Assembly (NCBI GenBank): GCA_949128025.1
Contig: CASBRD010000385.1
Coordinates: forward strand, 1 to 38,522
Reading direction: 5' to 3'
Length of the DNA: 38,522 nucleotides
From: Oscillatoriales cyanobacterium PMM_0008
GTDB taxonomy: Bacteria > Cyanobacteriota > Cyanobacteriia > Cyanobacteriales > Aerosakkonemataceae
Below, piece after piece: positions 1,842-36,345 of this stretch. The notes beneath the pieces are model-generated. The model was not told the DNA's origin, made no database searches, and saw nothing but the letters and a program-made list of their open reading frames with translations. The position numbers were made by a program, and so were the translations under genes. Within the stretch, counting starts at the first letter, position 1. The number at the start of each line of letters is the position of its first letter.

Positions 1842-4454
1842 CTAAAATTGACAGTTAGGTGGCGTTAGTGGAGTTCCGTGAGGTGTCACCTTTGGGGCTT
1901 GGGCTGTCAGGATAACTTCGCCATTGGGGCCAATTATCCAACCTTGAGCTTCCACAAGTTTGTCATTTGTCATTTGTCCTTTGTCAGTTGCAATTGACGA
2001 TTGAGTGCTGAGTGCTGAGGACTGACTGCTGAGGACGGAGGGAATGCGTAAATCTTCCCAAAATATGTCACCGCTGAGGGTATCGTCAGGACTGGGAGGC
2101 AAACCACCGCGACCAGTTACAAAAAAGGTATTATCTTCATTAACTGCGGGACAAGCTTGGACAATTAACCCGGTAGGATCGACAACTTCGACAGGGGGGA
2201 GATCCGGAGGACTAATTTCCACCTGACCTTCTACCCTCAATTCGCCACTGGGTTTGATGATGCTATCCAGGGACTGAAATACTGCTAAACCTGATTCTAA
2301 TAAAGGTGCGATCGTAATATTACTACCCCCTTGAGGATTTTGAGCATCAGTTCTGACTTGGCTACCTTCAAGAAGAACTAGGGTTTCTGTATTAATATTG
2401 ATATTGCCTTCTGCGGTTCGATCGGCTGAGACGGCAGATATTTCAGCTTGACCCCGTAGTTGAAGAGTACGCGATCGCAAATCAATATTGCCAGCCTTAC
2501 CTGTGGCAGATTCAGCTCGTAAAGCTCCTCCATCGCTAACAAGCATAAACGGAGCTGCGGCGATTAAGTTACCTGGATTTCCCGAACCTGTACTGCTGAC
2601 GATCGCATTGGCCCGATCTCCGACTATCAAACTATCAGCTTCAATATCCAACGTACCAGCATTTCCAGATCCCGTAGACAAAGCAGATATTTGTGCGGGA
2701 TTGGGACTCCCATCAAAATTCCTTCCCACACCAGTTATTTCCACCCCATCAGAGGCTCGAACAGTCAAAGAACCCGCATTTCCTTGTCCCAGAGAAGCTG
2801 CCGCCACTCTGGCTCCATCTTTGACGCGCAAACTTCCTGTGTTAATAATCACATTTTGTGCATTTCCCGTGGCTCCTGATTCGACTCTAGCCAATAAGCC
2901 GCTAGGAAGGCTACCATCAGGCGATCGACCGCTCAAATCTATTCGATCGGCCCTCACCCTCAAAATTCCGCCATCCCCATCTGCATAGGTAGAAGCCGCT
3001 ACCTGACCTCCATTGCGCGTCACTAAGGAGCCAGTTGAAATCTGCAAATTGCCGCCCTTGCCAGACCCGGAAGTGGAGGTTGACACTTGGGCTGGGTTGG
3101 GAGTGCCATCCACGTTTTTGCCCACCCCAGTTATTTCGATCGTCTGAGCTTGTACGGTTAAAGAGCCAGCATTGCCCTGTCCCAGAGAACCTGCGGTCAA
3201 TCTTGCCCCATCACTGACGTGCAAGTTCCCGGTCACAACTAGAACATCTCCCGCATTTCCCGTCGCGCCTCGTTCGACTCTAGCTAACACACCACCAGGA
3301 ATACTACCATCAGGCGATCGACCGCTCAAATCTATTCGATCGGCCCTCACCCTCAAAATTTCCCCATTGCCAGTTCCAGATGTAGAAGCAGATACCTGAG
3401 CTCCATCGCGGGTAATCAATCGTCCGGTCACAATCTCCAAATTGCCAGCATTTCCAGCACCAGTTGTCTCTGTAGATATGGCACTGGGCTGTACTAAATT
3501 TTGTCCCCCTTGGGCGACATTTCCCACGCCAATCAATTCCACAGTATCGCTTGCCCGAACGCTCACATTTCCTGCCAATTCAGCGCCCTGAGTATTTGCC
3601 CTTATTTGGGAACCATCAGTAAGGCTAATTCGCCTACCTAGCACTTGGATGTTACCACCTCCCAAACCGCTGGCATCGACTATTGCCTGCTGGGAAAGTT
3701 GAATGTCTCCATATTCTGTCGAAATTCCTTCGTTATCGGTTATTTGTGCTGGGCTATTAACCAAAGGCCAATTGCCGCTAACCAATGACACCAGTTCAAT
3801 TCGTCCTCTCTGTGCAGTTAAATTGCTACCTGTTAAGGTTATATCGCTACCTACCAGCGTCAGAGTTCTTTCAGGCGGCACCTGTATTGCCGACCCCTGT
3901 ACGGTAATTTTTCCCGTGTTACCGCTCAATTGCAAACCAATCGGTACACTTACTGTTAGTAAAGGTGTGGTTTGTACAGGTTTGGCACTAAATTGAGTTC
4001 CATCGGCAAAGTTAAGGCTATTCGCCGTAGAAGCCAGAAACGATCCGCCGATGTTCAGTTGAGCTTTAGACCCAAAAATAAACCCATTTGGATTAAGTAA
4101 AAATAAGTTGGCTGTGCCATTGGCTTTAATCAATCCATCAATATTAGAAATAGAGCCACCTGTGACGCGGCTGATAATGTTCTGGATATCAAGAGCATTA
4201 TTGAAGAAGCCAGTATTGTCGGTGGGGATGGAAAATTCCCCAAAGCTGTGAAATAGGTTGGTTCCGGCTTGAGTTCCTCCAGTGATGGTGGTGGTATTGC
4301 CGACTGGGGTAGCGATCGAATTAACTGGCAAAGTTGTATCTGGGACGATTTGTGCTGGAGTTGGTTTGCTACATATCAGAAAAAACAGTGTAGTTGCGAC
4401 GCGAAACCAGATTCTAAGATGATGGATTTTCAATAAGCCAATTCTGTTTTTCAT
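1842..4454 (-). CDS. Filamentous haemagglutinin-type exoprotein (TpsA-like)
   Basis: An 870-residue secreted beta-helical protein. A signal peptide (about residues 1-35, ending PTPAQ) precedes the haemagglutination activity domain (TPS domain, about 37-155), which carries the characteristic phrases LFHSFGEFSI, SNIDGLIKANGTANLFL, NPNGFIFG and GGSFLASTANSL. The rest is Gly/Asn/Ser-rich right-handed beta-helix repeats. One module of about 131 residues is duplicated: RVRADRIDLSGRSPDGS occurs near residues 365 and 496, with 57 identical bases. In this family export uses an FhaC/ShlB-type outer-membrane partner, which is not in the window. The C-terminus (EAQGWIIGPNGEVILTAQAP) is typical of cyanobacterial members. 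Residues about 806-831 are translated STRR. ATG 4454 starts the signal peptide. It lies between DUF928 and TPR-CHAT genes, all in one direction. Confidence 0.9.
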   Translation of the reverse strand: MKNRIGLLKIHHLRIWFRVATTLFFLICSKPTPAQIVPDTTLPVNSIATPVGNTTTITGGTQAGTNLFHSFGEFSIPTDNTGFFNNALDIQNIISRVTGGSISNIDGLIKANGTANLFLLNPNGFIFGSKAQLNIGGSFLASTANSLNFADGTQFSAKPVQTTPLLTVSVPIGLQLSGNTGKITVQGSAIQVPPERTLTLVGSDITLTGSNLTAQRGRIELVSLVSGNWPLVNSPAQITDNEGISTEYGDIQLSQQAIVDASGLGGGNIQVLGRRISLTDGSQIRANTQGAELAGNVSVRASDTVELIGVGNVAQGGQNLVQPSAISTETTGAGNAGNLEIVTGRLITRDGAQVSASTSGTGNGEILRVRADRIDLSGRSPDGSIPGGVLARVERGATGNAGDVLVVTGNLHVSDGARLTAGSLGQGNAGSLTVQAQTIEITGVGKNVDGTPNPAQVSTSTSGSGKGGNLQISTGSLVTRNGGQVAASTYADGDGGILRVRADRIDLSGRSPDGSLPSGLLARVESGATGNAQNVIINTGSLRVKDGARVAAASLGQGNAGSLTVRASDGVEITGVGRNFDGSPNPAQISALSTGSGNAGTLDIEADSLIVGDRANAIVSSTGSGNPGNLIAAAPFMLVSDGGALRAESATGKAGNIDLRSRTLQLRGQAEISAVSADRTAEGNININTETLVLLEGSQVRTDAQNPQGGSNITIAPLLESGLAVFQSLDSIIKPSGELRVEGQVEISPPDLPPVEVVDPTGLIVQACPAVNEDNTFFVTGRGGLPPSPDDTLSGDIFWEDLRIPSVLSSQSSALSTQSSIATDKGQMTNDKLVEAQGWIIGPNGEVILTAQAPKVTPHGTPLTPPNCQF

Positions 4455-4538
4455 GGGGAAAGCCCTCTCGGATGTGGTGTAAGTTTGGCAGTTAGATAGG
4501 GTAACAAGTAAGCTTTTGTGACGTTCTCTCAGGGTGTC

Positions 4539-4676
4539 ATATTATGTCCGGTTACATCGGCATTGTCTGTAGGAATCATTGGTTAAATTTAACCGCAGAT
4601 GAAGACAGATGAACGCGGATGAACGCAGATAAGAGTGGGAATTTTTTAGGTAACCGATGCTACTGGACACGATATC
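4539..4676. repeat. MITE-like element, copy 1
   Basis: The imperfect terminal inverted repeats read ATGTCCGGTTACATCGG at the left and, inverted, GTGTCCAGTAGCATCGGTTA at the right. The interior carries the sequence ACCGCAGATGAAGACAGATG followed by a tandem GAACGC-GAT unit. It is homologous to copies at 21626-21794 and, inverted, 36764-36920. It sits between the DUF928 and FHA genes. Confidence 0.75.
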
Positions 4677-4717
4677 ACCGAGTCCTAATTACCCATGCTC
4701 TATCTTCGTCGCTTGTC

Positions 4718-4864
4718 TCACTGGTCAAGCAGAGGCGCTTGAGCAAATTCACCTTGTCCAGCCGACTCCAATAATTCTTTCCACTCAGCAGCCAGTTGCG
4801 AGTCGTTAGGATTAGAAAGACGCAGCTCGGCTAGAGTTGTTAGAGCTTCGTGCCAAATTTTATA
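4718..4864 (-). pseudogene. DUF928 C-terminal remnant beyond an in-frame TAG
   Basis: Directly after the TAG at 4867-4865 the same frame stays open for 48 codons to TGA at 4720-4718. It encodes YKIWHEALTTLAELRLSNPN and ends in LAAEWKELLESAG plus a short tail. This matches the usual end of DUF928 proteins, where a helix with xIWYDALTTLAELR precedes a W..LL motif. No start codon with a ribosome binding site precedes it, so it is best read as the detached 3' end of the gene above it. It could still be made by read-through. Confidence 0.7.
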
Positions 4865-5500
4865 CTAACGATACAGCTTGACGCGATCGCGCGGTGTTGC
4901 CTTTTGCAGTTCGTTCCCGATAGGCGATCGCAATTCTGTTCGCCAAATCCACCCATCTACAGAAAGATCTTTTGTTGTATCTTTCGGATCGCAACGAATT
5001 ACAAAAAACCAAATGTAGTTCTTCCCAATCTCTAGTTCTGGTGCATTAGCAGGAAGTTTGAAGCTGACAATACCAGAGCGGCTGGGAATTGTCAAATTTG
5101 TCCTATAAACATCTTTATCGTTTTCATCCTTTAAAACAAATTCCCCCATGCGTGCAGAAGTTTGAGGAACATACACAAAAAATGTCGGACGTCCTTCCAC
5201 CGTTAATCCCAAGTTAATTTTGTCAGCGCTTTTTGGTATCAAAGCAGTCAGAGCCGAATTAGGGATCTCTTTATCCTTGGGACATCCTCCTGCGGGACGC
5301 TTCCCTCCAGATTCCGTTCTGGTTGGGGCACCTATATCCGGGTCAGGTTCATATGCGGATGTCTCGCCTCCCCTATTATTTTGGTTTGCTGGAGTGACTT
5401 GAGACTGCGCCTGCGTTGGCGGGAGAGTAAAACTAAGTAACTCCAGAGTTAGGGTGAGTGTTAAAGTCGCAAAATGCCAGGAAGACTGCTGCCAAACCAT
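4865..5500 (-). CDS. DUF928 domain protein, C-terminus cut by in-frame TAG
   Basis: This 211-residue product has a signal peptide (about 1-31, ending PTQAQS) and a DUF928 core: GGCPKD, LTALIPKSADKINLGLTVEG, PTFFVYVPQTSA, GIVSFKLPANAPELEIGKNY and VDGWIWRTEL. DUF928 proteins are secreted or periplasmic cyanobacterial proteins of unknown function, often encoded beside CHAT and FHA-type genes, as here. The family normally runs about 40-50 residues further. The missing part lies in the same frame just beyond the TAG at 4867-4865, so a nonsense mutation (or recoding, or a sequencing error) has split the gene. The ATG at 5500 fits the signal peptide. The gene is upstream of the FHA gene in the same direction, with a MITE-like element between them. 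Confidence 0.8.
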   Translation of the reverse strand: MVWQQSSWHFATLTLTLTLELLSFTLPPTQAQSQVTPANQNNRGGETSAYEPDPDIGAPTRTESGGKRPAGGCPKDKEIPNSALTALIPKSADKINLGLTVEGRPTFFVYVPQTSARMGEFVLKDENDKDVYRTNLTIPSRSGIVSFKLPANAPELEIGKNYIWFFVIRCDPKDTTKDLSVDGWIWRTELRSPIGNELQKATPRDRVKLYR

Positions 5501-5738
5501 AATATGTAACCTTTTGTAACGAGGTGGGCACAGGAGCAGAGGAGCAGAGGGGCTGCAGGAGAAAAGAAATAAAAATGTTCTTAATTATGAACAAAAGCAT
5601 AACAACTCCGAAAGAGCCCCTAATTCTACTTATACAGTTTGACTTTCGTGCTTACAATATCGTTTCCGGTTGATTGAGTTTCGTTATGACTAAGTGGAAG
5701 GACGGTTGCATTTAGGGGCTTTCGGACTAGCCTATTAA
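5501..5738. repeat. Intergenic stretch with a dispersed repeat and an inverted-repeat element
   Basis: No gene is seen between the DUF928 start and the terminator at 5739. A GAGGAGCAGAGGGG-type short tandem repeat (5530-5555) leads into a segment to about 5616 (AAAAGAAATAAAAATGTTCT, then ATGAACAAAAGCATAACAAC) that recurs at 15650-15730. Next, the arms CCGAAAGAGCCCCTAA (about 5609-5624) and TTAGGGGCTTTCGG (about 5712-5725) are inverted copies differing by one base and enclose about 90 bp. Confidence 0.6.
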
Positions 5739-5767
5739 AAAAGCGGGCTGTTAATCAGACCCGCTTT
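5735..5767 (-). terminator. Rho-independent terminator of the DUF2949 gene
   Basis: On the minus strand AAAGCGGG pairs with CCCGCTTT around a 12-base spacer and is followed by a T-run (CTTTTTTAAT). It lies about 115 bases past the DUF2949 stop codon and is the cleanest terminator in the window. Confidence 0.8.
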
Positions 5768-5881
5768 CAAAGATGGCATGGAAATAGAGGTAACTCAAGG
5801 GGACGTACCCATGCTGACGGTGATGCGCTGGGACATAATTGTTCTGACATAAATGTCAGCTCCTTGGCTATAGGTTAAATG

Positions 5882-6073
5882 TTAGGCTGTTTCCAGCCAG
5901 TCATAAATTTGCTCTAGTTGTTTGAGCGTCACCAGACCGTACTGCCAAAGAATCATTGGCAAAGGCCCTGGATCTTGCTCCCGATGCTTAAATACGATCG
6001 ACATGGAAGCGGCAGAAATTGCCAATTCTTCTTCCAAAAAGCGAATAAATCGTGAATTAGTTGTGGGTGCCAT
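5882..6073 (-). CDS. DUF2949 family protein
   Basis: A 63-residue protein with the DUF2949 signature: RFIRFLEEELAI, REQDPGPLPMILWQYGLV and LKQLEQIYDWLE. The family is small, restricted to cyanobacteria and of unknown function. The frame also offers GTG at 6085, but that codon overlaps the strong Shine-Dalgarno AGGAGG. ATG 6073 lies 11 bases downstream of it and begins MAPTTNSRF, so it is chosen here. The gene has its own terminator and a long upstream leader, so it is probably a single-gene transcript. Confidence 0.85.
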   Translation of the reverse strand: MAPTTNSRFIRFLEEELAISAASMSIVFKHREQDPGPLPMILWQYGLVTLKQLEQIYDWLETA

Positions 6074-6085
6074 TCGCACTTTCAC

Positions 6086-6765
6086 CTCCTCTTTAAGACA
6101 CCATTGTGTGATGTAGAACTTCCGACTTTAATCAGTCGATAGACAGTCTTTATGCCCCTGCCGCACTGTTCTCTATACCTCTTTTGTCGGATAAGGGCAA
6201 GAGTAAAAAGCGATGCTTCTGGGGATAAGTTCTACAATAGACTCGACGATCTACCAACCCAAATCCAACAGAGGATTGGGTGGAAATTAAACCCAAAGCT
6301 GAGTAGCGCAGGGATGTTCGCCTACCAGAGCAGCTTTTTTTTTATACCGCTCTCCCAGGGTCGCTATCGGCTGATACCAAGGTCTTCTATTTACTTGTCG
6401 ATCATCTTCTACTTCAGCGCTGTAACGACCCTTACCTATAACAGGGAAGAATTAATACTTTCACTTATGCCTCACACCTAGACATATCGGCATCACAAGA
6501 AATATAGCTTAGTTTGGGAAAACACTCCAAGAGCTTTAATGCCAATAATGCTGAAGAACAGAAGATCGTTTTTTATTCAACAAGTTATTCACCTTGACTG
6601 CTGCCAGTTCCCGAAGAAAGCAGATCCTATAGGAGTTGCCAATTTCAGGGACAAGCCCTTTGCGAACTTGCAGGTGTCTGGATAGACTAGCAAATTATTA
6701 CAGAAGTTTGTCAACATAGATAAGAATGTTAACATTTTTGAGCGACTTTGATAAACTTCTTAACT
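6086..6765. other. 680-bp region without a convincing gene
   Basis: This is the leader side of the DUF2949 gene and the downstream side of the DUF192 gene. Its one open frame (6152-6481, plus) has no family resemblance and no ribosome binding site. The notable content is a pair of plus-strand stem-loops ending in a T-run (6258-6346). I see nothing recognisable from 6350 to 6765. Confidence 0.5.
6185..6346 (+). ncRNA. Candidate small RNA with intrinsic terminator
   Basis: Two consecutive plus-strand stem-loops are visible. CCCAAATCC pairs with GGATTGGG around 6258-6281. AAAGCTG pairs with CAGCTTT around an inner GTAG-CG/CG-CTAC helix at about 6296-6340, followed directly by nine T residues. 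This is terminator architecture, yet no protein gene ends here. The 5' end is a guess: a TATACC hexamer near 6174 could be a -10 box. It does not match a cyanobacterial RNA family that I can name. Confidence 0.25.
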
Positions 6766-7365
6766 TTATGGCTGCGATCGACTAGATTGGGAAAACTGAA
6801 TTTCCACCTGCTGCCCGACTTTGACCCCCAGTTGGGCTGCTCGTCCGCCTCGTAGCTCGATCACTTGGTCTATCTCTGTGTTTGGGCCGTAGGTAGGACA
6901 GGGGGTGGTGGTACAAGGAGGCACGTTAGCTGCGATCGCTTTGACAACTCCAGAGCGCAAAAAAATCATATCAAGAGAAATCCTCACATTCTTCATCCAA
7001 AAACTGACAGGTTGGGGCGGCTGGAACTCAAACAGCATCCCCCGGTTATCCTGTAAAGATGTGCGGTACATCAACCCCAAAGCCTGCTGTTGGGGCGTGC
7101 GAGTCACTTCCAGTTGAATTACCTCGCCTGCGATCTTAGCTGTTGCTGAAATAGGTAGCATTTGACCCAAATCTGTCTGTGATTCCTTGCTGGTTAAAGG
7201 TCTTGGCGTCACCTGCTCTTGAGGTGTGGGCAGTTCAGCAGAAGAAGTGGGTGGAACTGAAGGGGAACAGCCTATGAGTAAAGCGCCCAACAGCAAACCA
7301 GCCAATTTTAGATTTTGGATTTTTCCCACTCTCCTACTCACTCTTCTAAGTTTCTCGTAAAACAT
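6766..7365 (-). CDS. DUF192 domain lipoprotein
   Basis: About 199 residues. The N-terminal hydrophobic stretch LAGLLLGALLIGC ends in a lipobox (LIGC), so it is probably a lipid-anchored periplasmic protein. After a Pro/Thr-rich linker comes a DUF192 domain: EVTRTPQQQALGLMYRTSL, GMLFEF, FWMKNVRISLDMIFL and IELRGGRAAQLGVKVGQ. The function of DUF192 is unknown. The frame begins at GTG 7374, but ATG 7365 has GAGG eight bases upstream and is preferred. Both starts lie inside the 3' end of the response-regulator gene (20-29 bp overlap), so translation is probably coupled. The codons before the hydrophobic segment (7307-7325) are an AAAATCCAAAATCTAAAAT repeat, so the N-terminus has been partly built from repeat DNA. 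Confidence 0.85.
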   Translation of the reverse strand: MFYEKLRRVSRRVGKIQNLKLAGLLLGALLIGCSPSVPPTSSAELPTPQEQVTPRPLTSKESQTDLGQMLPISATAKIAGEVIQLEVTRTPQQQALGLMYRTSLQDNRGMLFEFQPPQPVSFWMKNVRISLDMIFLRSGVVKAIAANVPPCTTTPCPTYGPNTEIDQVIELRGGRAAQLGVKVGQQVEIQFSQSSRSQP

Positions 7366-15477: not shown

Positions 15478-15495
15478 TGAGAGAATCTCCATTTT

Positions 15496-15582
15496 TAGTC
15501 ATTAGTCATTAGTCATTAGTCATTAGTCATTAGTCATCAGTCATTAGTCATTAGTCATTTCTTTAAAGCAATGACTAATGAC
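15496..15582. repeat. Heptameric STRR, unit TTAGTCA
   Basis: About nine tandem TTAGTCA units with one TCAGTCA variant, followed by inverted-sense ATGACTAATGAC. It lies immediately upstream of the Old Yellow Enzyme gene. Confidence 0.9.
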
Positions 15583-17146: not shown

Positions 17147-18277
17147 CTACTCCGCCTTCAAAGTCCGTCGCGCCAACTTCACATAAGTTTTCACCGTTTC
17201 ATAAGGCATATCCAAATCAGCAGCAATATCCTGCAACGATTCCCCAAACTCTCGCCTACCCAGAATAGTTGCCCAAGTTTCGGCAATTTCAGCAGTGCGA
17301 TTTCCACCAGTGCGTTTGCGTTGTGCGGTGAAAATTTCCGTTAATTCTGCAATTCTATTAGCCAACACATCCTCTATTGAAGATGCCGCAGATGTACCGC
17401 TATCCACTATCCATCCCTTCCAAGTTTGTCCTAACCCAAAAGTCGTTTTATGTCCCGTACCGCAATAAATTGCCAGTTCGCCTAAAGCATAAAATAATTG
17501 GACAAACTGAGAATTTTCTCTGGCTTTACTCGACAAACCCAATTCGATCGCACCAGTAAAACCCGTCACCGAACCCTTTTTTCCCGCTTGCACCTTACAG
17601 GATGACAGGTGGTGACGGTGAATAATCGCTCCTTCATCCACCCATTCTAGAAACGCATCTTGTTCAAATGGCATCCCCGAAAAATCATTCCAGCGCCGCA
17701 AATAGCTGTGAAACAAATTTATCGGCATCGGTAAAGGAAAATGATGTCCTTTGCGACGAAAGCTAGTCGGCGAAACAAAGCTGAGAGTGACAGTTTTTTC
17801 AATTTCAGTTGATAGTAAGTTGGCGTAAGTAGTAGGCGGTTGGGCAACCTGACAAGAGATAATTGTTAATGGCAAATCTCGCAAACTCACCTCGGCTGGT
17901 AACGCTTGCATCCACTTAGCCAACCATTGCACCACCCGTTGAGAAAGTCCCGTCACATACCAGCGATAAACCCTATCTGCTGCAACTTGTAACTGCCTAC
18001 CTTGAGGAATCAAAACACCATTTAACCCAGAGATAGTAAAAGCTTTTTCCGATTCCCCATCGTGGAGATAAGCAGACAAATCTGGGTCAATCTGTCGCAC
18101 GCGATCCAAAAACCAAGCATGAAGTCCCACGGCGTACTGAAGTGGCAAAAGTCCGTCAGTGCTGGATGACAGTTCAAACACTAATCCCACCAACTCGGTA
18201 TCGTCTGACCAAGTGGGAGTAGAATTATGAGAGGCACTTTGAGTACGCTTGCGAGTGCGTCTGGGAGTTTGAGTCAT
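17147..18277 (-). CDS. cas6: Orphan Cas6-family endoribonuclease with C-terminal HTH
   Basis: 376 residues. The N-terminal ferredoxin-like domain contains LPLQYAVGLHAWFLDRV (H53 is a candidate catalytic His) and EKAFTISGL. The block SPTSFRRKGHHFPLPMP...RRWN (169-197) and the glycine-rich loop YCGTGHKTTFGLGQT (271-285) are Cas6 hallmarks; Cas6 cuts CRISPR precursor RNA within repeats. After a linker (about 290-325) comes a helix-turn-helix like sigma-70 region 4 (ESLQDIAADLDMPYETVKTY, about 346-372). No other cas gene and no array is in the window. There is no Shine-Dalgarno before ATG 18277. A hairpin resembling a CRISPR repeat lies 20 bases upstream. The protein may serve a distant array, or may act on its own RNA or promoter. 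Confidence 0.88.
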   Translation of the reverse strand: MTQTPRRTRKRTQSASHNSTPTWSDDTELVGLVFELSSSTDGLLPLQYAVGLHAWFLDRVRQIDPDLSAYLHDGESEKAFTISGLNGVLIPQGRQLQVAADRVYRWYVTGLSQRVVQWLAKWMQALPAEVSLRDLPLTIISCQVAQPPTTYANLLSTEIEKTVTLSFVSPTSFRRKGHHFPLPMPINLFHSYLRRWNDFSGMPFEQDAFLEWVDEGAIIHRHHLSSCKVQAGKKGSVTGFTGAIELGLSSKARENSQFVQLFYALGELAIYCGTGHKTTFGLGQTWKGWIVDSGTSAASSIEDVLANRIAELTEIFTAQRKRTGGNRTAEIAETWATILGRREFGESLQDIAADLDMPYETVKTYVKLARRTLKAE

Positions 18278-18296
18278 CGCAGGGATAAGTTACGCT

Positions 18297-18331
18297 GGTT
18301 TAATCCCCATGAGGGGATAAATTCGATTATA
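18297..18331 (-). promoter_or_regulatory. cas6 promoter/leader hairpin resembling a CRISPR repeat
   Basis: On the minus strand a TATAAT hexamer (18331-18326) is followed at once by TTTATCCCC, TCAT and GGGGATTAAACC. ATCCCC pairs with GGGGAT around a four-base loop, extended by TTT/AAA with one bulged base. The end GGGGATTAAAC is close to the GGGATTGAAAC end of many cyanobacterial CRISPR repeats. If the TATAAT is used, the transcript would start at the hairpin. The same bases also form a DNA palindrome that could be an operator. Confidence 0.45.
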
Positions 18332-21500: not shown

Positions 21501-21510
21501 AGGCTGTTTG

Positions 21511-21605
21511 GTATGTTGTTGCGCTTGAGCGCTATCTTACAGGTATGTTGTTGCGCTTGAGCGCTATCTTACAGGTATGTTGTTGCGCTTGAGCGCTATC
21601 TTACA
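21511..21605. repeat. Three tandem copies of the GGTATGTTGTTGCGCTT repeat
   Basis: The unit GGTATGTTGTTGCGCTTGAG-CGCTATCTTACA occurs three times with a period of about 32 bp and no spacers. The matching inverted arm lies at 21796-21822, on the other side of a MITE-like element. Together with that element it fills the 378-bp gap before the cyclase gene. Confidence 0.85.
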
Positions 21606-21625
21606 GGATAAGGAAGAAGATGAGT

Positions 21626-34686: not shown

Positions 34687-36234
34687 ATGAGCCAAACATC
34701 TCTTCCTTCCTTAATTCAGCAAATGTTACAGCCGGGATTTTATCCTCACCCGGTAACAGAACCAATTAAACTGATTCAAACGCACGTTTCCTATGTGTTC
34801 CTCACCGGAGATTATGCTTATAAGGTAAAAAAATCCGTAAACTTTGGCTTTTTGAACTACTCCACTTTAGAACTCCGGCAACATTTTTGTAATGAAGAGT
34901 TCCGCATGAATAAGCGGGGCGCTCCCGAAATTTATTTAGAAGTTTTGTCAATAACTCAGACAGAAGACAAATTTCAACTGGGTGGCGCTGGTGAAGCGGT
35001 GGAATATACGCTGAAAATGTGCCAATTTCCTCAAGATGCGTTATTCCTGACTTTGTTTGAACAGGGTAAACTGACTGAGAAAAATATGGAGGATTTGGGG
35101 CGAGTTGTGGCAGAATTTCACGCTCAAGCACCAATTAATGACTACATTCGCACGTTTGGGGAAGTTGACCAGATTCGCCAAGCGATCGATGAAAATTACC
35201 AGCAAACTGAAAAATATATTGGTGGGCCACAAACTCAGTCTCAGTTTGACGAAACTAAGCAGTTTACAGATACTTTCTTTGCAGAACGGCAAGAACTCTT
35301 TGCTAGCCGAATTAAAAATAACTGGATTCGGCAATGTCACGGGGATTTACACCTGAGAAATATCTGTTTGTGGAATAACAAAATAATGTTATTCGACTGT
35401 ATTGAATTTAATGAGCCGTTCCGGTTTGTTGATGTGATGTTCGACATTGCTTATGCTGTGATGGAATTGGAAGGATTGCAGCGTTCAGACCTCTGCAATG
35501 CTTATTTGAATACTTACGTTGAAGAAACTGGCGACTGGGAAGGTTTGCAAGTTTTGCCTTTGTATGTAAGCCGTCAATCTTATGTGCGGGGAAAGGTAAT
35601 TTCCTTTTTATTGGACGATCCTGGTATTCCCGCAGATGAGAAAGAAAAGGCGAAAGAAACTGCTGCTCAGTATTACAAAATGGCGTGGCAATATACAAAA
35701 CCGCGTCAAGGTAAACTGATTTTAATGTCGGGGTTATCGGGTTCTGGTAAGAGTACGGTGGCGCGACATCTGGCTAGGAAAATAGGTGCAATTCAGATTC
35801 GTTCTGACGCGGTGCGAAAACATTTGGCTGGTGTACCTTTGCATGAAAAAGGTGGCGCAGATTTGTACTCGGCCCAGATGACTGAGAAAACTTATGGGCG
35901 TCTGTTGGAACTGGGAATTACGCTGGCTTCTGCTGGCTATCCGGTAATATTAGATGCTAAGTACGATCGCGTGGCGTTGCGTTCGGAAGCGATCGCACAA
36001 GCCGAAAAACATCATCTGCCTTTACAAATATTATCCTGTACCGCACCAGAAGATGTCTTGCGCGATCGCCTCTCCTCCCGTACTGGCGATGTCTCCGATG
36101 CCACAGCCAATCTCTTAAGTAGCCAACAAACCGCTAGCGAACCTTTCACCGAAGCTGAACAATCTTTTGTCAAAACATTAGACACCACGCAGGATTTAGA
36201 GTCACAATTAAGTGGTCTAGTCATTAGTCATTAG
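34687..36234 (+). CDS. Fused aminoglycoside-phosphotransferase-like and P-loop kinase protein
   Basis: 515 residues with two kinase-like domains. The N-terminal half (about 30-330) is APH-like: the Lys in YAYKVKKSVNFGFLNYST, the catalytic loop HGDLHLRNICL (218-228) and the metal motif FDCIEFNE (236-243). The C-terminal half has a Walker A motif GLSGSGKSTVAR (349-360), IRSDAVRKHL and VILDAKYDR, as in zeta-toxin/shikimate-kinase-like P-loop kinases. This two-kinase arrangement is widespread in bacteria; its substrate is unknown. The last residues (LVISH) and the TAG stop codon lie inside a TTAGTCA-type repeat, so the C-terminus has probably been reset by the repeat. Confidence 0.88.
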   Translation: MSQTSLPSLIQQMLQPGFYPHPVTEPIKLIQTHVSYVFLTGDYAYKVKKSVNFGFLNYSTLELRQHFCNEEFRMNKRGAPEIYLEVLSITQTEDKFQLGGAGEAVEYTLKMCQFPQDALFLTLFEQGKLTEKNMEDLGRVVAEFHAQAPINDYIRTFGEVDQIRQAIDENYQQTEKYIGGPQTQSQFDETKQFTDTFFAERQELFASRIKNNWIRQCHGDLHLRNICLWNNKIMLFDCIEFNEPFRFVDVMFDIAYAVMELEGLQRSDLCNAYLNTYVEETGDWEGLQVLPLYVSRQSYVRGKVISFLLDDPGIPADEKEKAKETAAQYYKMAWQYTKPRQGKLILMSGLSGSGKSTVARHLARKIGAIQIRSDAVRKHLAGVPLHEKGGADLYSAQMTEKTYGRLLELGITLASAGYPVILDAKYDRVALRSEAIAQAEKHHLPLQILSCTAPEDVLRDRLSSRTGDVSDATANLLSSQQTASEPFTEAEQSFVKTLDTTQDLESQLSGLVISH

Positions 36235-36345
36235 TCATTAGTCATTAGTTATTGGTTACAAACACCAAAAAATGGACAACTGATTATGGACTTTTGGCTT
36301 TTGACCAATGACCAATGACCAATGACTAATGACTAATGCCAAAAT
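36218..36345. repeat. STRR tract (TTAGTCA and CAATGAC units)
   Basis: About four TCATTAG units, a spacer, then AATGACC and AATGACT units. The left end supplies the stop codon of the kinase fusion, the right end the ATG of the next gene. Confidence 0.9.

What the first reader, a model, noticed from the sequence alone, without database searches (positions are those of the whole stretch)
18275..18331. CRISPR-repeat-like hairpin at the predicted 5' end of an orphan cas6 mRNA
On the minus strand a TATAAT (18331-18326) is followed within a few bases by a strong stem-loop, ATCCCC-TCAT-GGGGAT, ending GGGGATTAAACC. The stem and the end resemble cyanobacterial CRISPR repeats (..GGGATTGAAAC). Cas6 binds exactly such hairpins. 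A single repeat-like hairpin in the leader of cas6, with no array nearby, suggests that Cas6 binds or cuts its own message, a self-limiting loop. The alternative is a decayed array of which one repeat is left.
Basis: partly seen in the sequence, partly recalled or inferred. Interest (0 to 1): 0.75.

Follow-up and report, generated by a model that had tools for sequence, protein, structure and literature searches.

The report
CRISPR-repeat-like switch before cas6 gene
Many cyanobacteria keep one copy of a CRISPR-repeat-like hairpin sequence just in front of a gene for the enzyme that cuts CRISPR repeats, which suggests that the enzyme senses and limits its own production, although the switch may work on DNA rather than on the message as first thought.

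Summary
ATCCCC-TCAT-GGGGAT lies at 18318-18303 (-), 25 nt before the ATG of a Cas6 with a C-terminal sigma-region-4-like helix-turn-helix. No array and no other cas gene (14 of 52 ORFs scanned) were seen in the window, but the genome has an array with the same stem beside an RT-Cas1 gene.

The element is conserved. TCCCC-N3..5-GGGGA lies in the 260 nt before 58 of 105 orthologues; shuffled leaders gave 1.9. It occurs in 35 of 57 genera. Between sister loci the stem is 186/190 identical, the upstream flank 108/380. The 3' flank resembles the crRNA handle. So it is repeat-derived and under selection, not merely decayed.

The proposed mechanism is only partly supported. Relatives show no conserved -10 before the hairpin; a -10-like box follows it (29 of 49 leaders, 7.6 in shuffles), which puts the hairpin near -35, upstream of the likely start. 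I favour autoregulation by Cas6-HTH at a DNA operator. In this genus the layout still allows an RNA leader. No transcript data were available.

The parts
17147..18277 (-). cas6-HTH gene, 376 aa
   Evidence: ORF; PF10040 E 5.6e-20, 72.3 bits against a cut-off of 25; TIGR01877 78.9 bits against 58.65; Cas6 fold, best PDB matches Thermus Cas6
17423..17785 (-). Cas6 C-terminal domain of the product, residues 165-285
   Evidence: PF10040; same place
17159..17263 (-). sigma-70 region-4-like helix-turn-helix of the product, residues 339-373
   Evidence: PF08281 E 3e-5, 24.0 bits, just under its cut-off of 25.7; 11 of 11 proteins of A1 match at E<=0.1; domain model pLDDT 87; first Foldseek match SigmaE region 4 on -35 DNA, but E 0.28
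18303..18318 (-). CRISPR-repeat-like inverted repeat ATCCCC-TCAT-GGGGAT (conserved core TCCCC-N4-GGGGA, 18304-18317)
   Evidence: stem found in 58 of 105 orthologous loci
18297..18304 (-). ATTAAACC, resembles the 8-nt 5' handle of crRNAs (in relatives A-Y-[GT]-[GA]-A-A-A)
   Evidence: position profile of 49 leaders; +1..+6 identical at 82 of 114 positions between sister loci
18287..18292 (-). TAACTT, candidate -10 at an offset (11 nt after the stem) where many relatives have one
   Evidence: weak match, inferred
18326..18331 (-). TATAAT upstream of the hairpin, candidate -10 shared by the three species of the genus, not conserved beyond it
   Evidence: TATAAT-like box just upstream in 7 of 49 leaders

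Best explanation
The hairpin is a CRISPR-repeat-derived cis-regulatory element of the cas6-HTH gene. Shown here: it is conserved before the gene, its stem is under strong selection, it has the stem and handle of the repeats that this Cas6 family sits beside, and in 29 of 49 leaders a -10-like box follows it within 12 nt, mostly at offsets 0-1, 6-7 or 10-11. Inferred: where the offset is 6-11 the dyad TCCCC-N4-GGGGA covers the -35 region and acts as a DNA operator. The sigma-region-4-like domain of Cas6-HTH, perhaps as a dimer, binds it and lowers transcription of its own gene. CRISPR repeats, as DNA or as pre-crRNA, would compete for Cas6-HTH, so the supply of Cas6 would follow the repeat load. 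In the window's genus, where the hairpin lies 25 nt before the ATG and a TATAAT precedes it, the same element may lie at the 5' end of the message and be bound as RNA.
For: Stem in 58 of 105 loci against 1.9 in shuffled leaders and 0.031 per leader from the loci's non-array background; 35 of 57 genera and 12 of 18 families; 40 of 58 solo. Stem 186/190 identical between sister loci against 108/380 at -40..-21. Spacer length 4 in 48 of 49 with free sequence, as for a dyad operator. -10-like box 0-12 nt downstream in 29 of 49 leaders against 7.6 +/- 2.6 in shuffles and 7 at the mirrored upstream place; at 5-12 nt, clear of the A-rich handle, 21 against 5.1 +/- 2.2, upstream 5. By genus 23 downstream, 7 upstream, of 35. 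In one clade five loci (L062, L074, L075, L077, L078) are nearly identical from the stem through TATACT to the ATG and TATACT is kept in 7 of the 8 shown, while DNA more than about 5 nt upstream of the stem does not align. HTH: PF08281 in 11 of 11 proteins of A1; domain model closest to SigmaE region 4 on its -35 DNA. Recognition helix motif in 52 of 54 hairpin loci and 28 of 43 others, p 7e-5.
Against: No transcript, binding or expression data. The helix-hairpin association does not survive the tree: of 10 independent pairs, 0.6 go together and 0.1 against on average, p 1. The helix motif is also kept in 28 of 43 loci without the hairpin. The -10 offset varies, 20 of 49 leaders lack a good -10-like match at 0-12, and matches at 0-1 may only reflect the handle. 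The one-sided handle-like flank suits an RNA substrate better than a symmetric operator. L068, of the same clade, keeps the stem but not TATACT (left out of the display). L039 has its stem about 20 nt before the ATG with a TATGCT upstream, like the window. Foldseek E for the HTH is weak (0.28 at best) and VIA Z is 6-7, which common helical arrangements also reach. P0001 is below the PF08281 cut-off. Hairpin presence changes at least 21 times on the tree, so it is often lost, gained or missed.
Confidence: 0.42

Rival explanations
1. RNA leader: the hairpin is transcribed at the 5' end of the cas6 mRNA, and Cas6 binds or cuts it there, limiting its own translation or message life.
For: Stem and 3' flank have the form of Cas6 substrates: cut below the last C-G pair, between C-G and U-A, with the G side 3' (passages of PMC3575380). 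In the window's genus TATAAT ends 7 nt before the stem and the ATG follows 25 nt after it. In L022 the nearer of two units, and in L023 the recognised unit, lie 14 nt before the ATG, and in L039 about 20 nt. The nearest solved relatives are Thermus Cas6 proteins, several in RNA complexes.
Against: No conserved -10 upstream of the stem; -10-like boxes lie downstream. In one clade the upstream DNA does not align. No compensatory change in 5 pairs of 49 leaders; of 10 departures from the common pair 4 are T.G, which is neutral. The -1/+1 positions pair about as often as their composition predicts (counts, my arithmetic).
Confidence: 0.25
2. Operator or -35 element for another factor: a host regulator or alternative sigma factor, not Cas6, reads the dyad at the cas6 promoter.
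For: Same promoter geometry. The HTH helix motif is kept in 28 of 43 loci that lack the hairpin, so the two are not tied.
Against: The sequence matches the repeats of the arrays that stand beside this Cas6 family, handle included, which a foreign factor would not explain.
Confidence: 0.15
3. Relic: the hairpin is the last repeat of a lost array, kept by chance or only because the cas6 promoter grew beside it.
For: In 7 of 58 loci the leader unit is in register with a further unit, in 11 more another unit lies within 1500 nt. Arrays stand upstream of cas6-HTH in 22 loci, 15 of them in the same direction.
Against: 40 of 58 are solo within the DNA held; stem 98% identical while the far upstream flank is near random between sister loci; presence across 35 of 57 genera.
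Confidence: 0.13
4. CreR- or CreA-like guide: the unit makes a crRNA-like RNA that guides an effector to the cas6 promoter.
For: Standalone repeats with that role are known (one passage of PMC13131331; starts of the abstracts of PMC8501985 and PMC9458426 in the listing).
Against: No second unit within 1500 nt in 40 of 58 loci; the sequence after the handle is the sense start of cas6 itself. Complementarity was not searched.
Confidence: 0.05

Closest known systems
Cas-regulating RNAs (CreR; one passage of PMC13131331) and CRISPR-derived standalone repeats in cas loci (Shmakov et al. 2023, title seen in a reference list only, content recalled)
   Same: A repeat-like element outside arrays that feeds back on cas expression
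   Different: Those act through a guide and an effector complex with partial complementarity to a promoter; here there is mostly one unit, no evident guide, and the likely reader is Cas6 itself
Racr / solitary repeat units of phages (PMC10651486, abstract start and passages)
   Same: A single repeat mimic, often just after a predicted promoter; a tested one interacts with Cas6f and Cas7f
   Different: Encoded by viruses and inhibitory to host immunity; here it stands before cas6 itself
Trailer-end degenerate CRISPR repeats (recalled)
   Same: Seven leader units are in register with further repeat units upstream of cas6
   Different: 40 of 58 are solo and their stem is conserved over genera
Autoregulated HTH regulators with a dyad operator at their own promoter (recalled)
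   Same: HTH protein with a conserved inverted repeat before its own gene
   Different: The protein is a Cas6 endoribonuclease and the dyad has the sequence of its likely RNA substrate

Membership tests
Cas6 endoribonuclease | Match to the Cas6 models above their cut-offs, Cas6 fold | tested here: met
   PF10040 72.3 bits (cut-off 25), TIGR01877 78.9 (58.65), Foldseek E 3.5e-12 to Thermus Cas6 with a model of mean pLDDT 68
Cas6 endoribonuclease | Cleavage of repeat RNA by this protein | not testable with these tools
   needs biochemistry
Sigma-70 region 4 | Curated PF08281 cut-off | tested here: not met
   24.0 bits against 25.7, E 3e-5; so called 'like', not a member
CRISPR array | Two or more repeats with spacers | tested here: not met
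   one unit, no array in the window
CRISPR repeat (sequence kinship) | Same stem and handle as repeats of arrays in the genome and next to orthologues | tested here: met
   array repeat ..TCTCCCCGCAAGGGGATTGAAAC in G000; 22 loci with arrays; loop and 5' half differ
CreR / standalone-repeat guide | Spacer with partial complementarity to a cas promoter | not tested
   no complementarity search was made
Cis-acting mRNA leader hairpin | Lies within the transcript | not testable with these tools
   no transcript data; -10-like boxes argue against it in most relatives
Cis-acting mRNA leader hairpin | Compensatory base-pair changes | tested here: inconclusive
   0 compensatory changes, stem nearly invariant in 49 leaders
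DNA dyad operator | Conserved inverted repeat with fixed spacing before the gene | tested here: met
DNA dyad operator | Lies at the promoter that is used | tested here: inconclusive
   -10-like boxes by sequence only; no mapped start
DNA dyad operator | Bound by a protein | not testable with these tools
   needs EMSA or footprinting

The most novel reading that the evidence does not exclude
A Cas6 fused to a -35-binding, sigma-region-4-like domain uses a CRISPR-repeat copy at its own promoter as operator, while the array repeats act as decoys: a built-in gauge that matches the supply of crRNA-maturing enzyme to the number of repeats in the genome, in which the substrate sequence itself serves as the operator.
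Probability: 0.27. Interest if true: 0.82.

Novelty: new variant of a known kind. Interest (0 to 1): 0.64.

Why it matters
How systems with scattered arrays set their Cas6 level is, as far as I know, open. A conserved repeat copy before the gene of a Cas6 with a DNA-binding-like domain offers a simple, testable gauge of repeat load, in a widespread cyanobacterial gene (96 of 388 genomes sampled). It would be, to my knowledge, the first CRISPR-derived regulation that works through Cas6 without a guide. The ten paper searches listed no description of it, but they cover open-licence papers only and the nearest paper (Shmakov et al. 2023) was not held.

Tried and rejected
Chance: rejected. Intrinsic terminator: no T run after the stem, and not listed by the scan. 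Known Rfam family: no match in the window at gathering scores. Ribosome-site masking: by eye the stem lies within about 25 nt of the ATG only in two of the three species of the window's genus (in L012 an insert separates them), L022, L023 and L039, so it is not general. A shared trait of all cas6 genes: of 12 non-HTH Cas6 genes whose loci were fetched (12 of the 20 genomes; further non-HTH places were not looked at), the script counted loose 1-mismatch matches in 2, both inside the open frame, and none with a clear leader hairpin. Co-loss of hairpin and recognition helix looked strong by Fisher's test but is not independent on the tree, so I do not lean on it. A regulon: with a pattern that also demands the AAA of the handle, the genome has 22 matches, 18 on C208 and 4 on C80, C122 and C281; for those three contigs no ORF over 80 aa starting within about 200 nt was seen on the strand tested, one of them near a contig end. 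Covariation as proof of RNA: not possible with an invariant stem.

Selection of data: the pattern was chosen after reading leaders, so the counts are not blind; the later loci L057-L116 alone give 27 of 60. The leader shuffles shuffle dinucleotide blocks (20 rounds); those shuffle single bases. Of 101 places listed, 90 were used and 11 partial matches left out. L007 duplicates L012 and was not counted; L009-L011 are other Cas6 genes; L026 is a fragment; L024, L025 and L073 appear to come from one genome (contig lengths). The 49 leaders are the 58 after removal of near copies. The 19 sister pairs were picked by me from the tree. L068 was left out of the display.

Full report
What is there. On the minus strand the window reads TATAAT (18331-18326), seven bases, ATCCCC-TCAT-GGGGAT (18318-18303), TAAACC, and an ATG at 18277. 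The gene (17147-18277) encodes a 376-aa Cas6: PF10040 and TIGR01877 are above their cut-offs and the predicted fold is nearest to Thermus Cas6 (whole model pLDDT 68). Residues 339-373 resemble sigma-70 region 4 (PF08281, E 3e-5, slightly under the cut-off), and 11 of 11 proteins of alignment A1 match it at E<=0.1. Modelled alone, the C-terminal domain (pLDDT 87) has E. coli SigmaE region 4 on its -35 DNA as first Foldseek match, at a weak E of 0.28, and sigma region-4 structures are among the top VIA rows at Z 6-7, where common helical arrangements also score. Fourteen of 52 listed window ORFs, cas6 included, were scanned and gave no other cas gene; there is no array in the window.

The gene is not an orphan in the genome. 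Contig C208 carries an array whose repeat, read in the crRNA direction, ends ..TCTCCCCGCAAGGGGATTGAAAC (18 copies), beside an RT-Cas1 gene. A second Cas6 without HTH lies on C329, about 2.4 kb from two copies of another repeat at the contig end. The leader hairpin shares stem and handle form with the C208 repeat but has another loop (TCAT, not GCAA). That this Cas6 serves the C208 array is an inference.

Conservation. Orthologues were found in 96 of 388 genomes sampled from the class, 58 of 160 genera (E<=1e-60). I used 105 loci: 14 of the 15, L008, and 90 of 101 places (fetched). TCCCC-N3..5-GGGGA with at most one mismatch lies within 260 nt upstream of a fixed point near the N-terminus in 58 of 105. 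Shuffled leaders give 1.9 +/- 1.2, and the non-array rest of the same loci predicts 0.031 per leader. Of the 90 class-sample loci 49 have it, in 35 of 57 genera and 12 of 18 families. It is missing or unrecognised in 47 of 105; in family f38 only 2 of 11 loci have it, in f20 0 of 5. On a tree of 102 proteins presence changes at least 21 times.

Selection. In 19 sister pairs, the ten stem positions are identical in 186 of 190 cases, the loop in 44 of 75, +1..+6 in 82 of 114, and -40..-21 in 108 of 380, which is near random. The spacer is four bases in 48 of 49 non-redundant leaders, with free sequence. The 3' flank is Y-[GT]-[GA]-A-A-A, as in the handle of these repeats. There are no compensatory pair changes; the stem is too constant to test pairing.

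Relation to arrays. In 22 loci an array of this repeat type lies upstream of cas6-HTH, 15 in the same direction and 7 reversed. The leader unit is in register with a further unit in 7 of 58 loci, has another unit within 1500 nt but off register in 11, and is solo in 40 within the DNA held. So it probably began as the last repeat of an array and was kept for another purpose. That history is inference.

Promoter position. A box like TATAAT (T1, A2, T6 and at least 4 of 6) lies 0-12 nt after the stem in 29 of 49 leaders against 7.6 +/- 2.6 in shuffles; at mirrored places upstream it is 7. At 5-12 nt, clear of the A-rich handle, it is 21 against 5.1 +/- 2.2, upstream 5. By genus it is 23 downstream and 7 upstream of 35. 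Offsets cluster at 0-1, 6-7 and 10-11; those at 0-1 overlap the handle and may only reflect it. In one clade, five loci are nearly identical from the stem through TATACT to the ATG; of the eight shown, seven keep TATACT, while DNA more than about five bases upstream of the stem does not align. L068 of the same clade keeps the stem but not TATACT. If these boxes are used, the dyad lies between about -37 and -13, outside the message. In the window's genus there is a weak TAACTT at offset 11, which would start the message almost at the ATG, and a good TATAAT upstream; there the RNA reading stays open. In L022 and L023 a unit lies 14 nt before the ATG, and L039 has its stem about 20 nt before the ATG with a TATGCT upstream; these also fit an RNA leader.

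Control. Of 12 non-HTH Cas6 genes fetched from 12 of the 20 genomes, the script counted loose matches in 2, both inside the open frame, and no clear leader hairpin.

Mechanism. I think it most likely that Cas6-HTH reads the dyad at its own promoter, through the HTH as DNA, and represses itself, with the repeats of the arrays competing. The main support is geometry plus the HTH. The main gaps are the lack of any transcript or binding data and the failed independence test for the helix-hairpin link (52 of 54 against 28 of 43, p 7e-5 by Fisher, but p 1 on independent pairs). The RNA reading keeps a quarter of my belief because the element has the form of a Cas6 substrate (passages of PMC3575380).

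Literature. Closest are guide-based autoregulation by CreR (one passage of PMC13131331), CreA (starts of abstracts), viral solitary repeats that interact with Cas6f (abstract start and passages of PMC10651486) and Shmakov et al. 2023 on CRISPR-derived RNA regulatory elements, of which I saw only the title in a reference list; it is not held. RT-Cas1 fusions with a Cyanobacteria-specific branch are described in PMC5513706 (passages). Passages of PMC10989914, PMC10013973, PMC8616872 and PMC3150331 named no such element. In the listings and passages that I saw from ten searches, none describes a repeat at a cas6 promoter or this Cas6-HTH fusion.

Noticed in passing
L117:7482-9566 (-) and 4129-6865 (own genome contig C208): RT-Cas1 fusion (RVT_1 E 6e-41, Cas1 E 8e-89) next to an 18-copy array interrupted by about 1.1 kb that holds two ORFs without Pfam match.
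   Followed up: partly
L012, between hairpin and cas6 ATG (about 1778-1878): Argonema antarcticum has a roughly 100-nt insert with inverted ends (AAGCTG..CAGCTT), MITE-like, between the hairpin and the cas6 start.
   Followed up: no
L017-L020, upstream of cas6-HTH: Scytonema and Brasilonema leaders lack the CCCC stem but have another palindrome (AGAGACC..GGTCTCT; imperfect in L018, interrupted in L019) followed by GATTGAAAC (GATTCAAAC in L020).
   Followed up: no
L089, L091, L092, L101, upstream of cas6-HTH: A different dyad, AAGGGATCCCTT, lies in 4 of the 5 leaders of a family (f20) that lacks the hairpin; possibly a replacement operator.
   Followed up: no
L022: Two repeat-like units 75 nt apart directly before cas6-HTH, like a two-repeat mini-array, the second ending 14 nt before the ATG.
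   Followed up: partly
window 21508-21607: Three 32-nt tandem units GGTATGTTGTTGCGCTTGAGCGCTATCTTACA just after a glycosyltransferase gene.
   Followed up: no
window 15495-15566 and 36217-36260: Tandem TTAGTCA heptamers, with a weaker run at 397-440.
   Followed up: no
L094, L100, L102, L103, L106, L107, L109, L110 (8 of 11 loci of family f38): The HTH recognition helix is changed (YETVRKYAQ or YETVRKYSQ) in 8 of 11 f38 loci, where the hairpin is present in only 2 (L094, L097).
   Followed up: partly
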